Source: Mesostigma viride (lineage: Eukaryota > Streptophyta > Mesostigmatophyceae > Mesostigmatales > Mesostigmataceae). From it: a DNA stretch of 64,000 nt. The stretch's first letter is position 1, and each line of letters opens with the position of its first letter. The DNA lies in contig RPFO01000156.1 of assembly GCA_009746045.1 (NCBI GenBank), forward strand, positions 2,547,588 through 2,611,587, in the 5' to 3' direction. A program made the position numbers and the translations under genes. Below the pieces are notes generated by a model. The model did no database searches, had not been told where the DNA came from, and saw only the letters and a program-made list of their open reading frames with translations. Positions 17,541 to 23,500 of the stretch are shown piece by piece.

Positions 17541-20500
17541 TTAGTCCAGCATGGCCGTCCAATCATGCGGCTTCCACTTCTTCAAAAACTCCTCCAGTGC
17601 CGCCGACTGTTGCACCTGCCCCACCTTCCTGGCGCGGCGGTGCATGTCCACATCGTTCTCGAGCATGCCCAGGATGACGTTGCGGCCAAACGCAACGTTC
17701 CACTTGGTCTCGTCCTGGAGCGCCACGTGGCAGTACATGTTTAAAATGTGGACACACATGTTGAGTCAAAGTAGTACGAAGTTAGATCACGTAATATGGG
17801 TCGCCATACCAAGACAACGGGTAGGGAAAGAAGGGGAGAAGGGGAGAAGGGGAGAAGGGGAGAAGGGGAGAAGGGGAGAAGGGGAGAAGGGGAGAAGGGG
17901 AGAAGGGGAGAAGGGGAGAAGGGGAGAAGGGGAGAAGGGGAGAAGGGGAGAAGGGGAGAAGGGGAGAAGGGGAGAAGGGGAGAAGGGGAGAAGGGGAGAA
18001 GGGGAGAAGGGGAGAAGGGGAGAAGGGGAGAAGGGGAGAAGGGGAGAAGGGGAGAAGGGGAGAAGGGGAGAAGGGGAGAAGGGGAGAAGGGGAGAAGGGG
18101 AGAAGGGGAGAAGGGGAGAAGGGGAGAAGGGGAGAAGGGGAGAAGGGGAGAAGGGGAGAAGGGGAGAAGGGGAGAAGGGGAGAAGGGGAGAAGGGGAGAA
18201 GGGAGAAGGGGAGAAGGGGAGAAGGGGAGAAGGGGAGAAGGGGAGAAGGGGAGAAGGGGAGAAGGGGAGAAGGGGAGAAGGGGAGAAGGGGAGAAGGGGA
18301 GAAGGGGAGAAGGGGAGAAGGGGAGAAGGGGAGAAGGGAGAAGGGGAGAAGGGGAGAAGGGGAGAAGGGGAGAAGGGGAGAAGGGGAGAAGGGGAGAAGG
18401 GGAGAAGGGGAGAAGGGGAGAAGGGGAGAAGGGGAGAAGGGGAGAAGGGGAGAAGGGGAGAAGGGGAGAAGGGGAGAAGGGGAGAAGGGGAGAAGGGGAG
18501 AAGGGGAGAAGGGGAGAAGGGGAGAAGGGGAGAAGGGGAGAAGGGGAGAAGGGGAGAAGGGGAGAAGGGGAGAAGGGGAGAAGGGGAGAAGGGGAGAAGG
18601 GGAGAAGGGGAGAAGGGGAGAAGGGGAGAAGGGGAGAAGGGGAGAAGGGGAGAAGGGGAGAAGGGGAGAAGGGGAGAAGGGGAGAAGGGGAGAAGGGGTG
18701 AGGGGTACAAAGAAGGGAGAAGATAAGGTAAAAACCTTGCTTGATGACGGTCACCTGCCGGGGTCATTCGCCTGAATAGACAGTGACTATGATAATTAAC
18801 AGCAATAATAAACTCTCACTACGCCACAGTCCTGTAGCTCCCCCCGCGAATGTAGCATGCATGCAGTAATAGAAATGTAAAACTAGTGCAGGCTGCAGCT
18901 ACAAACTCCAAGGACAAAACATTAGCAAATTGCCCCCCCAAAGACCGAGATGCAATGCGCCCCCCCCAATGTCCCTAAGCAGCAAGGGTAGCCCATGGGG
19001 TCACAATGCAGCAAGCACAGCTAACAACAGGTCACTATGCAGCAAAGACAGCTACGACGACAAGGCAGCCACCTATCCAAAGGGCAGTCAAGTCCTGGGA
19101 AAACAAGGGCAGCAAGAAAGGGTGCAGCAATGGCAGCCATAAGGCACAGCACGAGTGCAGCCACAAGGGGCTTGAACTATGCAGCAAGGGCAGCCAGAAA
19201 AGATTTTCTGTGCAGCAAGAGTATTCATGAACAAAGCACTACGCAGCAAATGAAGCCACGATGGATCAACTATGCAGCAAGGGCAGCCAGAAAAGATTTT
19301 CTGTGCAGCAAGAGTATTCATGAACAAAGCACTACGCAGCAAAATGAAGCCACGATGGATCAACTATGCAGCAAGGGCAGCCAGAAAAGCTTTTCTGTGC
19401 AGCAAGAGCATCCATGAACAAAGCACTACGCAGCAAATGAAGCCACGATGGATCAACTACGCAGCAAGGGCAGGAACAAGAGGTTCGCCATGCAGCAAGC
19501 ACAGGTACAAAACAGATTACCATGACAGCACGTGCAGCTACGACGCCAAGGCAGCCACAAAGGGTTCACTATGAGGTGAGGGCGGCCACATACAAAAGAC
19601 TATGCAGCAACGGCAGATATCACGCAAGCGCAGCCACTCACGTCGATGACGTGGACGTAGCCCTTCTGCAGACCGAACTCGACGTGGAAGTAGGGGAAGT
19701 TCTTGGGGATGCTGCCCCGCAGCCCCTTCTTGCTCGTGTCGATCAGCTTCTGTGCGTTGTGCGTGCTCCACTCGCTCTCCGATTCGTCGATCGCCTGCGG
19801 GCCAGGGGTGTGTGTTTACAGTTTCAGGGTCGTGGCAGGGTTTCGGTGGGGTTAGGGTAGGTTAAGCAAACTTTTGGTAAGGCCATGTGAGGGCTTGAGC
19901 TCAGGGTTTTAGGAAATCAGGGGTAGTAAGTCTTGAAGTACATAAGCTGCACATCTGCTTTAAGTGCAATCGCCACCTGCCACCCAAGTGATTTGTTGAA
20001 AATGCCTTTGTCGCCACACACTGCGTGAAATGCTTGGACCAACTGCCGGCTTGAAGTCAACGAGCCACCCACCTGGTTAGTACTTGGTTAAACGTTACCT
20101 CTTCCCCACCCACCTGTTTCAAGCATTTGGGCCTCCTGCCTGCTTCGAAAATGTTTGCCACCAACCTGCTCGGCATTAATTAGACAACTAACGGCTTAGA
20201 ATGTGTTAGCCAGTAACCTGCATGATAGACCTTACGCCACCGACCTGCTTAATGCACATCAGCCATCCACCTGATAAAACAAACTGTAGCAGCCCCCCTA
20301 GCTGCTTGAAATACATCAAATCTTTACAGCCCCTACGGCCTACAGCCAGTACAATAGCCACTACATGTCTAAACATCACACTGGCCACTCATCTGCTTAA
20401 TTGCTTAATTAAGTATTAAGTCTCGTGTCCCCGCTCACTTGCTTGAAGTACATGAAGCGCCTACACGCTTAACATACACTAGCCACTTATATGTTTACAA

Positions 20501-23500
20501 CATACCTTAAGCAAGGGACCTGCTTAAAGTACATGGGCGCAATCAAGCTACCGGGAAACCACTCACCTGCTTCAAGTACATCAGCCACGTACCTGCTTGA
20601 AGCACATCAGCCACATACCTGCTTGAAGCACATCAGCCACATACCTGCTTGAAGCACATCAGCCACATACCTGCTTGAAGCACATCAGCCAGGTATCTGC
20701 TTGAAGCACATCAGCCACATACCTGCTTGAAGTACATGGGCGCGTCTTCCGCGAGCTCCGAGTCGAGCGGGAAACATTCAACGAACGCGTGCCGCTCGCG
20801 CTTCTGCAGATGCATCGCCGTCTCCAGGAACAGGCACTGGGGGAGGGGGGGAGGGGTGAACCAATGGGTGGGGAAAGAGCATGCGGGGTAGCACATTTAT
20901 TTACACGTAGACTGCGTCACAGGGGCTTAAGCCCTCAGTCAGATGGAGACGGAATGCAGGGAATAAATGGGCCAAGTGCAGCGACAGAAGTGCGAGGGCA
21001 TCGCCGTCTCCAGGAACAGGCACTGGGTGGGTGGGTATTGGGTAACGCCACCGGCCTCACCTCTTCCCCTCCCTCATGCGTGCCATGCTCCCTTCTGCCC
21101 CAACGCCACCACCATACCGCCACCGGCCTCACCTGCTTCCCCTCCCTCACGCGTGCCATGCTCCCTTCTGCCCCAACGCCACCACCATGACGCCACCGGC
21201 CTCACCTGCTTCCCCTCCCTCACGCGTGCCATGCTCCCTTCTGCCCCAACGCCACCACCATAACGCCACCGGCCTCACCTGCTTCCCCTCCCTCACGCGT
21301 GCCATGCTCCCTTCTGCCCCAACGCCACCACCATGACGCCACCGGCCTCACCTGCTTCCCCTCCCTCACGCGTGCCATGCTCCCTTCTGCCCCAACGCCA
21401 CCACCATAACGCCACCGGCCTCACCTGCTTCCCCTCCCTCACGCGTGCCATGCTCCCTTCTGCCCCAACGCCACCACCATGACGCCACCGGCCTCACCTG
21501 CTTCCCCTCCCTCACGCGTGCCATGCTCCCTTCTGCCCCAACGCCACCACCATAACGCCACCGGCCTCACCTGCTTCCCCTCCCTCACGCGTGCCATGCT
21601 CCCTTCTGCCCCAACGCCACCACCATAACGCCACCGGCCTCACCTGCTTCCCCTCCCTCACGCGTGCCATGCTCCCTTCTGCCCCAACGCCACCACCATA
21701 ACGCCACCGGCCTCACCTGCTTCCCCTCCCTCACGCGTGCCATGCTCCCTTCTGCCCCAACGCCACCACCATAACGCCACCGGCCTCACCTGCTTCCCCT
21801 CCCTCACGCGTGCCATGCTCCCTTCTGCCCCAACGCCACCACCATGACGCCACCGGCCTCACCTGCTTCCCCTCCCTCACGCGTGCCATGCTCCCTTCTG
21901 CCCCAACGCCACCACCATAACGCCACCGGCCTCACCTGCTTCCCCTCCCTCATGCGTGCCATGCTCCCTTCTGCCCCAACGCCACCACCATGACGCCACT
22001 GGCCTCACCTGCTTCCCCTCGGCCGCGAACATCTTAAGGAGGCACTTCTTGAAGTTGCGCAGCTCCTCCCACACGTCCTCGTCAAGGCCACGTGTCGCGC
22101 TCTCGTGCTGCCAGGTGTGACATGGGAGGCAGCCACAGGACGTATGCAGCGGGAGCCGAGATATGCGAAGCCAGTCACCTCAGGTTGGTGGGCTATAACA
22201 AGGCAGCGATGATGCAAGGTGCAAGGACCAGATGAAATTCACGATTCATGCGAGGCTAGGTAACGAAGACAACCCTTAAATGAGGCGATGCCTAGAGAGC
22301 TGAAAAAAAAGAAGAGATCTGAAAAAATTAGAACCGCAAAGATATGATTGACACACCGTATGGAAAAGCAAGATTCACATATAGGGGGGGCGACAGAAGA
22401 AAAAGCAAAAGAGTAAAAAGTTTTAAAAGATAATCGGAAAGCAGTGGAAGTTAGAGGCCCAAGCGGTCCCATGCCATCACAAGGTGCAGATCAGAGCGAA
22501 ACATGAGCATAAGTCAGGATATTTGCTCGCAAACCATGGACCCATAGTCGTACCAACATTACAGCCATTCAGGCACAACTTTCCTTACCCGCCAACTCGC
22601 ACACACACACACACACACGACCTGCACAGACTTCCGCCCCACAATATCCCACACGATGTTGCCAACCGGGTGCGAATGCGGCAGCGAGCCAACCAGGCCC
22701 ACAGGGTAAAAAGGTATTACTACATATCAAAAAGCAAAGTAAAAAGAAAAAGCTAAGAGGGCTGCAGGGTAAGGATGAGGGGTGGACAAGCATGGGGACG
22801 TAAAAATGCGTCACGATGACGAAAATGTAGTGCACGAGTCAATGTCTCACTGATTGATACAAAATTGAATAGGGAGATAGGTTGTTGAACAATTAGGGAG
22901 ATAGATTGACACCATTTGGCCATGTATCGCACGTAAAACGCAGTTATGGGAGCCCCACCCCCGGGCCACGCATTCCCATCCATCTGGATGAGGCCAACCC
23001 AATAGGGAGTGGCCCGGCTAGGTTGCCCCCAACCTAAATGGGCAGGATGATGCAGTGACCAGGCTAGATTAAGTCATGAGTGGCCGGTAAAATATAGTAT
23101 TTCCCCCCCACCTGGATGGGCAGGATGATGCAGTGGCCAGGCTAGATTAAGTCATGAGTGGCCGGTAAAATATAGTATTTCCCCCCCACCTGGATGGGCA
23201 GGATGATGCAGTGGCCAGGCTAGATTAAGTCATGAGTGGCCGGTAAAATATAGTATTTCCCCCCCACCTGGATGGGCAGGATGATGCAGTGGCCAGGGAC
23301 GACTGGCTTAGCGGGCGGCAGCATCAGGTAGCTGCGGTTTGCGATCGAGATGGTCAGGTGCTTGGGCCGGTTCGGGTTCTCCAAGCAGAAAGTGCAGCGG
23401 TCCTGCGGGTGGGGGTGGGGGGGAAGGGGGGCGGGGATTTGCAAGTTCAGGCACAGATCTCATTAGAGAAGATGGTCCTGCGCACGATCAAGGTTGCAGG

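What the first reader, a model, noticed from the sequence alone, without database searches (positions are those of the whole stretch)
19870..23402. Intronic tandem arrays in CWF19L2 are copies of the upstream exon's end plus its 5' splice site
Three consecutive introns show the same thing with different sequences. The 78-bp units (x4) repeat CIILPIQ codons plus GTGGGG, the 73-bp units (x13) repeat EGKQ codons plus GTGAGG, and the ~28-bp units (x5, then decaying over ~850 bp) repeat YFKQ codons plus GTATGTGG. Each array abuts the real donor and loses similarity with distance. This suggests a recurrent process that duplicates DNA across exon-intron junctions and expands introns from the splice site outward, leaving rows of decoy donors. 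Tandem duplication around AGGT has been proposed as an intron-gain route; here it appears as an intron-growth route at many junctions.
Basis: partly seen in the sequence, partly recalled or inferred. Interest (0 to 1): 0.87.

Follow-up and report, generated by a model that had tools for sequence, protein, structure and literature searches.

The report
Splice-donor copies fill alga introns
In this green alga, many introns carry extra copies of the last bit of the preceding exon plus its splice signal, as if introns grow by local DNA duplication at their start; ordinary duplication plus tolerant splicing explains much of it.

Summary
Three consecutive CWF19L2 introns begin with arrays (78, 73, 26 bp units) whose units contain the end of the upstream exon plus the 5' splice site. 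It is general: copies at 10 of 22 window donors (4 genes) and at 14 of 46 donors in 13 chaperonin and kinesin genes elsewhere, against 1 of 272 and 3 of 1482 mismatched exon/intron pairs in the two main sets; reverse complements 0 of 57. Acceptors show copies less often (6 of 61 against 25 of 64 donors, p = 1.6e-4). In 9 of 10 multi-copy introns the nearest copy scores above the farthest. Copy density falls from 40% at the donor to 20-24% at 40-160 nt and 6-9% deeper.

Best explanation: frequent local tandem duplication, tolerated at donors because the exon-proximal donor stays in use, kept visible (perhaps re-seeded) by the conserved exon, and mostly purged at acceptors. A modelled constraint effect (1.6-1.7x) does not cover the whole donor excess, yet recent exact copies are not enriched at donors: a donor hot spot is possible, not shown. 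No sign of AGGT intron gain (0 of 54). The genome is probably Mesostigma viride (inferred).

The parts
23268..23402 (-). CWF19L2 exon DRCTFC...CIILPIQ, parent of the 78-bp units
23026..23267 (-). 78-bp array at the donor: three intronic copies of exon end plus donor
22009..22107 (-). CWF19L2 exon HESATRG...AEGKQ, parent of the 73-bp units
21043..22020 (-). 73-bp array, 13.4 copies, unit contains GAGGGGAAGCAG|GTGAGGCC; first unit begins in the exon
20998..21027 (-). 30-nt copy of the following exon's start with its acceptor, upstream of the real acceptor
   Evidence: sequence
20895..20956 (.). dispersed repeat fragment between the acceptor copy and the real acceptor
20723..20836 (-). CWF19L2 exon CLFLET...YFKQ, parent of the 26-bp units
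20565..20737 (-). 26-bp array (6.7 copies) starting in the exon end; decayed copies continue downstream
19642..19794 (-). CWF19L2 exon AIDESES...HVID; its intron has repeats but no exon-edge copy (negative case)
27325..27637 (-). CWF19L2 donor after ...DHFAENI with three diverged exon-edge copies (63, 111, 312 nt)
31071..31140 (-). CWF19L2 donor after ...PKEE with one diverged copy starting 49 nt downstream
36977..37450 (+). second gene (RING protein, AMFR-like by recall), donor ...VMFLHIR with copies at 218, 383 and 467 nt
37942..37995 (+). second gene, donor ...DDCAICK with copy at 45 nt
39138..39225 (+). second gene, donor ...CLRSW with copy at 75 nt
33883..34080 (+). second gene, donor ...VLGFLK with diverged copy at 194 nt (exon part only)
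8835..8957 (-). third gene (Rossmann/SDR-like by recall), donor ...KSGVLK with exon-part copies at 63 and 122 nt

Best explanation
These are exon-anchored intronic minisatellites: products of ordinary local tandem duplication in a duplication-prone genome, filtered by splicing. A duplication that starts in the last 7-64 nt of an exon and ends in the intron leaves exon + donor + copy of exon end + copy of donor. The exon-proximal donor continues to be used, so the protein is unchanged and the intron is longer (inferred from protein alignment). Because the exon edge and donor are under purifying selection, the parent never decays: the pair stays recognisable longer and can mispair again, adding units on the exon side and pushing older, decaying copies inward (inferred from polarity and gradient). 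The mirror event at acceptors puts a second acceptor before the real one, which splicing would tend to use, so it is mostly removed (inferred from depletion).
For: Direct-orientation, private copies: pooled 23 of 57 donors; reverse complement 0 of 57; other introns of the same gene 0 of 224; other genes 7 of 2968; preceding 600 nt 0 of 57. Independent genes: 12 of 39 against 3 of 1482 mismatched pairs, kinesins 2 of 7. Peak at the junction; 0 of 57 for 40-mers ending 40, 50 or 60 nt inside the exon. Donor over acceptor: 25 of 64 against 6 of 61, p = 1.6e-4; without the window 14 of 46 against 4 of 46, p = 0.016 (numbers; tests). Polarity: nearest copy scores above farthest in 9 of 10 introns with 2 or more copies, equal in 1, reverse in 0. 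Gradient: 0.40 at the donor (22 of 55), then 0.24, 0.20, 0.09, 0.09, 0.06 going inward. A fresh-looking 40-bp unit (30 exon + 10 intron nt) in a chaperonin gene and a perfect 38-nt copy in a kinesin gene. Between two alleles, 3 of 8 indels of 7 nt or more (18, 43 and 7 nt) are clear tandem copies of flanking DNA and a fourth (9 nt) is borderline.
Against: Several single copies (for example 218 nt from the second gene's HIR donor) match the exon for about 20-60 nt but the intron for only about 8 nt or less, with unrelated DNA between. One simple duplication does not give this; it needs later insertions or a different copying step. Diverged low-copy repeats are 5.6 times commoner at donors than inside introns (26.5% of 49 against 4.7% of 2606), more than the 1.8-2.0 that the constraint model gives. 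In the HIR intron a nearer copy, seen by eye, is more diverged than the one at 218 nt, and in two introns a middle copy scores above the nearest. Which donor is used was not tested with RNA. The one allele pair examined carries the 40-bp duplication on both copies, so no event was caught in the act.
Confidence: 0.6

Rival explanations
1. A donor-specific duplication process: the 5' splice-site region is itself a hot spot, for example because transcription or R-loops there favour slippage or templated copying, and introns grow from that point.
For: Diverged low-copy repeats 5.6-fold over intron interior against 1.8-2.0 expected from constraint; donor fraction exceeds 1.7x baseline (p 5e-5 to 0.03 by the baseline taken); purely intronic points 40-160 nt from the donor are also about 2-fold elevated over deeper ones.
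Against: Young exact copies of 20 nt or more: donors 5 of 57, intron interior 303 of 2505. Elevated intronic points near the donor may just be array units seeded at the donor.
Confidence: 0.17
2. Insertions near donors with long flanking direct repeats: staggered breaks or mobile elements duplicate the exon edge plus donor on both sides of an insert of roughly 20-190 nt.
For: Single copies whose homology covers only exon end plus about 8 nt, with unrelated DNA between; the acceptor-side copy in the 73-bp intron flanks a dispersed repeat found at 23 other listed places.
Against: Does not explain multi-unit arrays; repeats of 20-60 nt are long for target-site duplications (recalled); with gapped alignment 10 of the 14 introns that gave a match run 29-819 nt into the intron, some at only 60-64% identity; inserts were not compared with each other as such.
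Confidence: 0.1
3. The copies are kept by selection as U1-binding or decoy donors that help define the 5' splice site or protect long introns from premature polyadenylation.
For: GT is kept in 48 of 56 copies.
Against: Just over half of the kept GTs (26 of 48) sit in four multi-unit arrays; the copies also keep exon sequence that U1 would not bind; more than half of donors have no copy (34 of 57).
Confidence: 0.06
4. Intron gain by tandem duplication of an AGGT-containing exon segment.
For: Units of the three arrays start GT and end AG, as that model requires.
Against: Donor and acceptor windows of the same intron are not similar: 0 of 54 at score 13 or more, mean 6.45 against 6.57 for mismatched pairs.
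Confidence: 0.03
5. Assembly artefact or chance.
For: The window has a run of N beside simple repeats.
Against: Many copies are diverged, so they are unlikely to be mis-joined reads; mismatched pairs and reverse complements give near zero; the 40-bp unit is present in two separately assembled copies. The likely source assembly used PacBio reads (PMC6947507, passages).
Confidence: 0.03

Closest known systems
Intron gain by tandem duplication of AGGT exon segments (Rogers model; potato RdRp case, PMC4974935, and fission-yeast multi-copy cases cited there; passages)
   Same: Local tandem duplication involving exon sequence and splice sites; the potato duplication crosses an intron-exon boundary; fission-yeast genes carry several 24-bp duplicates.
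   Different: There a new intron arises. Here existing introns seem to be lengthened, the exon end is copied into the intron's start, and the intron's own ends are not alike (0 of 54).
Human introns from tandem arrays (Zhuo et al. 2007; title only seen, in the reference list of PMC3488318)
   Same: Tandem arrays linked to introns.
   Different: From the title, concerns origin of introns; content not read.
Intron sliding and tandem duplication in Drosophila (PMC2891723; abstract and passages)
   Same: Duplicated coding segments with splice motifs as a source of change in intron structure.
   Different: Concerns new intron positions in a limited set of genes; the passages seen do not treat donor-side growth of old introns.
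Ordinary intronic minisatellites
   Same: Unit size, head-to-tail arrays, near-identical copies.
   Different: One end is anchored in a conserved exon; copies show polarity with distance from it.
Introner elements (recalled)
   Same: Repeated sequence families that change intron content.
   Different: Introners share sequence between introns. These copies are nearly all private to one intron (0 of 224 same-gene, 7 of 2968 other-gene pairs match).

Membership tests
Intronic minisatellite | Head-to-tail units of about 10-100 bp | tested here: met
   78, 73 and 26 bp units; but 11 of 21 introns with donor copies had a single copy over threshold
AGGT tandem-duplication intron gain | Both ends of the intron derive from the same duplicated segment, so donor and acceptor windows are alike | tested here: not met
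   0 of 54 introns
AGGT tandem-duplication intron gain | Intron absent in close relatives | not testable with these tools
   The tool states that the genome has no relatives there (output)
Introner / mobile element | Same sequence inserted at many unrelated introns | tested here: not met
   Junction copies: 7 of 2968 other-gene pairs match; a dispersed repeat does lie in one intron
Tandem duplication spanning a junction | Direct orientation, nearby, covering exon and intron | tested here: met
   reverse complement 0 of 57
Tandem duplication spanning a junction | Whole unit duplicated, intron part included | tested here: inconclusive
   Met for arrays; several single copies keep only exon part plus about 8 nt or less
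Splicing-neutral intron growth | Exon-proximal donor used | tested here: inconclusive
   Gapless protein alignment across the array introns of CWF19L2 and profile-consistent joins; no RNA

The most novel reading that the evidence does not exclude
In this alga introns grow chiefly at their 5' end. Each donor junction acts as a permanent seed: selection keeps the exon edge and donor intact while copies are repeatedly spun off into the intron, and the spliceosome's use of the first donor makes this free, whereas the same event at acceptors is punished. Intron length would then be set by a splice-donor-anchored duplication engine whose traces stand at three to four donors in ten.
Probability: 0.35. 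Interest if true: 0.75.

Novelty: new variant of a known kind. Interest (0 to 1): 0.62.

Why it matters
How introns become long is usually put down to transposons (general knowledge). Here a countable, testable alternative is visible: duplication across donor junctions, with a strong donor/acceptor asymmetry that may report which splice site the spliceosome chooses when near-identical ones stand in a row. It gives a natural system for studying donor choice, and a caution for gene prediction, since convincing decoy donors with real exon ends sit inside introns.

Tried and rejected
AGGT intron gain: 0 of 54. Junction as a plain mutational hot spot: not seen in young copies. A polymorphic event: I first read as one allele lacking the 40-bp duplication; one search showed that both alleles carry it, one with a mismatch, so I dropped it. 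A sharp copy boundary at +8: seen in ungapped comparison, but gapped alignments run 29 nt or more into the intron in 10 of 14 introns, so it is left open. Inverted copies: none. Introns with copies are not significantly longer: median 842.5 against 698, p = 0.19. The aldehyde dehydrogenase search gave 12 matches without enough neighbouring exons and was not used. Rfam (gathering threshold) and tRNA scans of the window: nothing. An earthworm paper on intronic minisatellites (PMC12783039, passages) did not bear on donors.

Rows dropped: 11 chaperonin gene stretches were fetched; 6 neighbouring exon pairs gave no acceptable intron model and pairs with profile gaps were skipped, leaving 39 introns in 10 genes; the second allele of one gene was left out. 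For kinesins 134 matches were listed but only 4 genes were fetched: 9 neighbouring pairs, 7 intron models in 3 genes. Window donors were chosen by homology or reading frame; four that I had first left out were tested later (1 of 4) and are not in the pooled tests. Query windows differ slightly: 30+10 nt+15 nt. Low-complexity queries and short targets were left out (49 of 57 donors kept; 52-55 of 64 kept). The score cut-off of 15 was set on the window set and then used on the others.
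Full report
What is there. On the minus strand the window holds CWF19L2 (CwfJ_C_1 domain), last exon near 17544-17741, upstream exons to about 31.6 kb. Three of its introns start with tandem arrays whose unit carries the end of the upstream exon and the donor: 78 bp (30 exon nt), 73 bp (12 exon nt) and 26 bp (about 15 exon nt). The next intron has repeats but no exon copy.

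Is it more than chance? I placed 17 donors in four genes of the window by homology and reading frame: CWF19L2; a RING protein on the plus strand at 32-42 kb, which I call AMFR-like (Pfam hits below the curated cut-off; the name is recalled); a thioredoxin-like gene; and a Rossmann/SDR-like gene (both names recalled). The last 30 exon nt plus 10 intron nt were aligned to the donor's own intron and to the others. Own: 8 of 17 at score 15 or more; mismatched: 1 of 272; none of 100,000 random pairings reached the observed sum. An eighteenth donor (...DHFAENI) also has copies, and of four further donors 1 has: 10 of 22 in the window, in three of the four genes (neither thioredoxin-like donor has one).

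Is it general? The window's genome is G000, 439,911,974 bases in 2243 contigs. Size and contig number fit the published Mesostigma viride assembly (441,847,188 bp, 2363 scaffolds, mean intron 1142 bp, PacBio plus Illumina and optical maps; PMC6947507, passages), and the best named protein hits are land plants; the species name remains an inference. Neighbouring exon matches to the chaperonin profile gave 39 introns in 10 genes on other contigs. Donors: 12 of 39 against 3 of 1482 mismatched pairs; acceptors: 4 of 39 against 2 of 1482. Seven kinesin introns in 3 genes, taken later as a check: donors 2 of 7, plus one at score 14; acceptors 0 of 7, plus one at 14; mismatched 1 of 42, probably because these genes are paralogues.

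Shape of the signal. Pooled over 57 donors, 40-mers hit most often when they straddle the junction (24 of 57 for the one covering -20 to +20) and never when they end 40, 50 or 60 nt inside the exon. Donors 23 of 57, acceptors 6 of 54 (p = 5e-4); reverse complement 0 of 57 and 0 of 54; same-gene other introns 0 of 224; other genes 7 of 2968; preceding 600 nt 0 of 57. With kinesins 25 of 64 against 6 of 61 (p = 1.6e-4); outside the window 14 of 46 against 4 of 46 (p = 0.016). With a 300-nt search, intronic 40-mers are repeated locally in 24% (40-100 nt from the donor), 20% (100-160), 9% (160-300), 9% (300-600) and 6% (beyond; 24 introns), against 22 of 55 at the donor and 5 of 51 at acceptors; with a 600-nt search the bins are 26, 23, 12, 12 and 10%. 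In 10 introns with two or more copies the nearest scores above the farthest in 9 and equal in 1, though not always step by step.

Mechanism. Local duplication is common here: 14% of 1450 intron-interior 40-mers have a nearby copy (per-intron mean 9%), as do 10% in one intergenic stretch of the window and 23% in another stretch (24.4-27.4 kb), but only 2% in a 10-kb stretch elsewhere. Among 8 indels of 7 nt or more between two alleles of one gene, 3 are clear tandem copies of neighbouring DNA and one is borderline. Young exact copies of 20 nt or more are not denser at donors (5 of 57) than at points in introns (303 of 2505; per-intron mean 6.6%) and are absent at acceptors (0 of 54). A simulation in which the exon and donor are frozen gives 1.6-1.7-fold longer detectability (1.8-2.0 for diverged copies). 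The observed excess is larger, especially for diverged low-copy repeats (26.5% of 49 donors, 4.7% of 2606 interior points). I therefore favour ordinary duplication plus splicing tolerance plus anchoring by the conserved exon, and keep a donor-specific bias open. Shown: copies, privacy, asymmetry, nearest-over-farthest polarity, gradient. Inferred: use of the exon-proximal donor (protein alignment), re-seeding from the exon, purging at acceptors.

Results against. Single copies such as those of the HIR, DCAICK and KSGVLK donors keep the exon part plus only about 0-8 intron nt. Gapped self-alignment, which gave a match in 14 introns, extends 29 nt or more into the intron in 10 of them, some at only 60-64% identity; others remain exon-plus-donor only. 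The acceptor-side copy in the 73-bp intron flanks a dispersed repeat, which hints at insertion with flanking repeats there.

Literature. Duplications across or near exon-intron borders are known singly: the potato RdRp case and fission-yeast cases (PMC4974935, passages), Drosophila (PMC2891723, abstract and passages). Ten searches (an eleventh was malformed and did not run) returned no listing that describes donor-edge copies filling introns across a genome. The library holds only open-licence papers, and most listings were seen as titles and abstract starts only. I therefore rate it a new variant of a known kind: known mutation type, new scale, site and asymmetry.

Noticed in passing
7249-8582, 59212-60594 and 63680-63970, minus strand: Long open frames; those at 7249-7587 and 63680-63970 have nearly the same protein text, apparently a dispersed coding element.
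   Followed up: no
20895-20956: Dispersed repeat with 23 other listed places in the genome, inside the 73-bp-array intron, between the acceptor copy and the true acceptor.
   Followed up: partly
1578-4059: 69-bp unit, 36 copies, 98% alike, ending about 75 nt upstream of an acceptor of the SDR-like gene; I saw no exon copy in it by eye.
   Followed up: no
28836-28945: Hexamer array inside the long CWF19L2 exon, read as Asp-Arg repeats.
   Followed up: no
L042 and L048: Two copies of one chaperonin gene region on C887 and C1641, with 1.7-2.1% mismatches in the aligned parts, perhaps haplotypes kept in the assembly; a kinesin region on C2 and C622 looks the same by score.
   Followed up: partly
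23970-24364: Run of N beside a GGGAAGG array: an exon between the DHFAENI and DRCTFC exons may lie there.
   Followed up: no
41942-42086: 53-bp array in an intron of the RING gene, 67 nt after its donor, with no exon-edge copy.
   Followed up: partly
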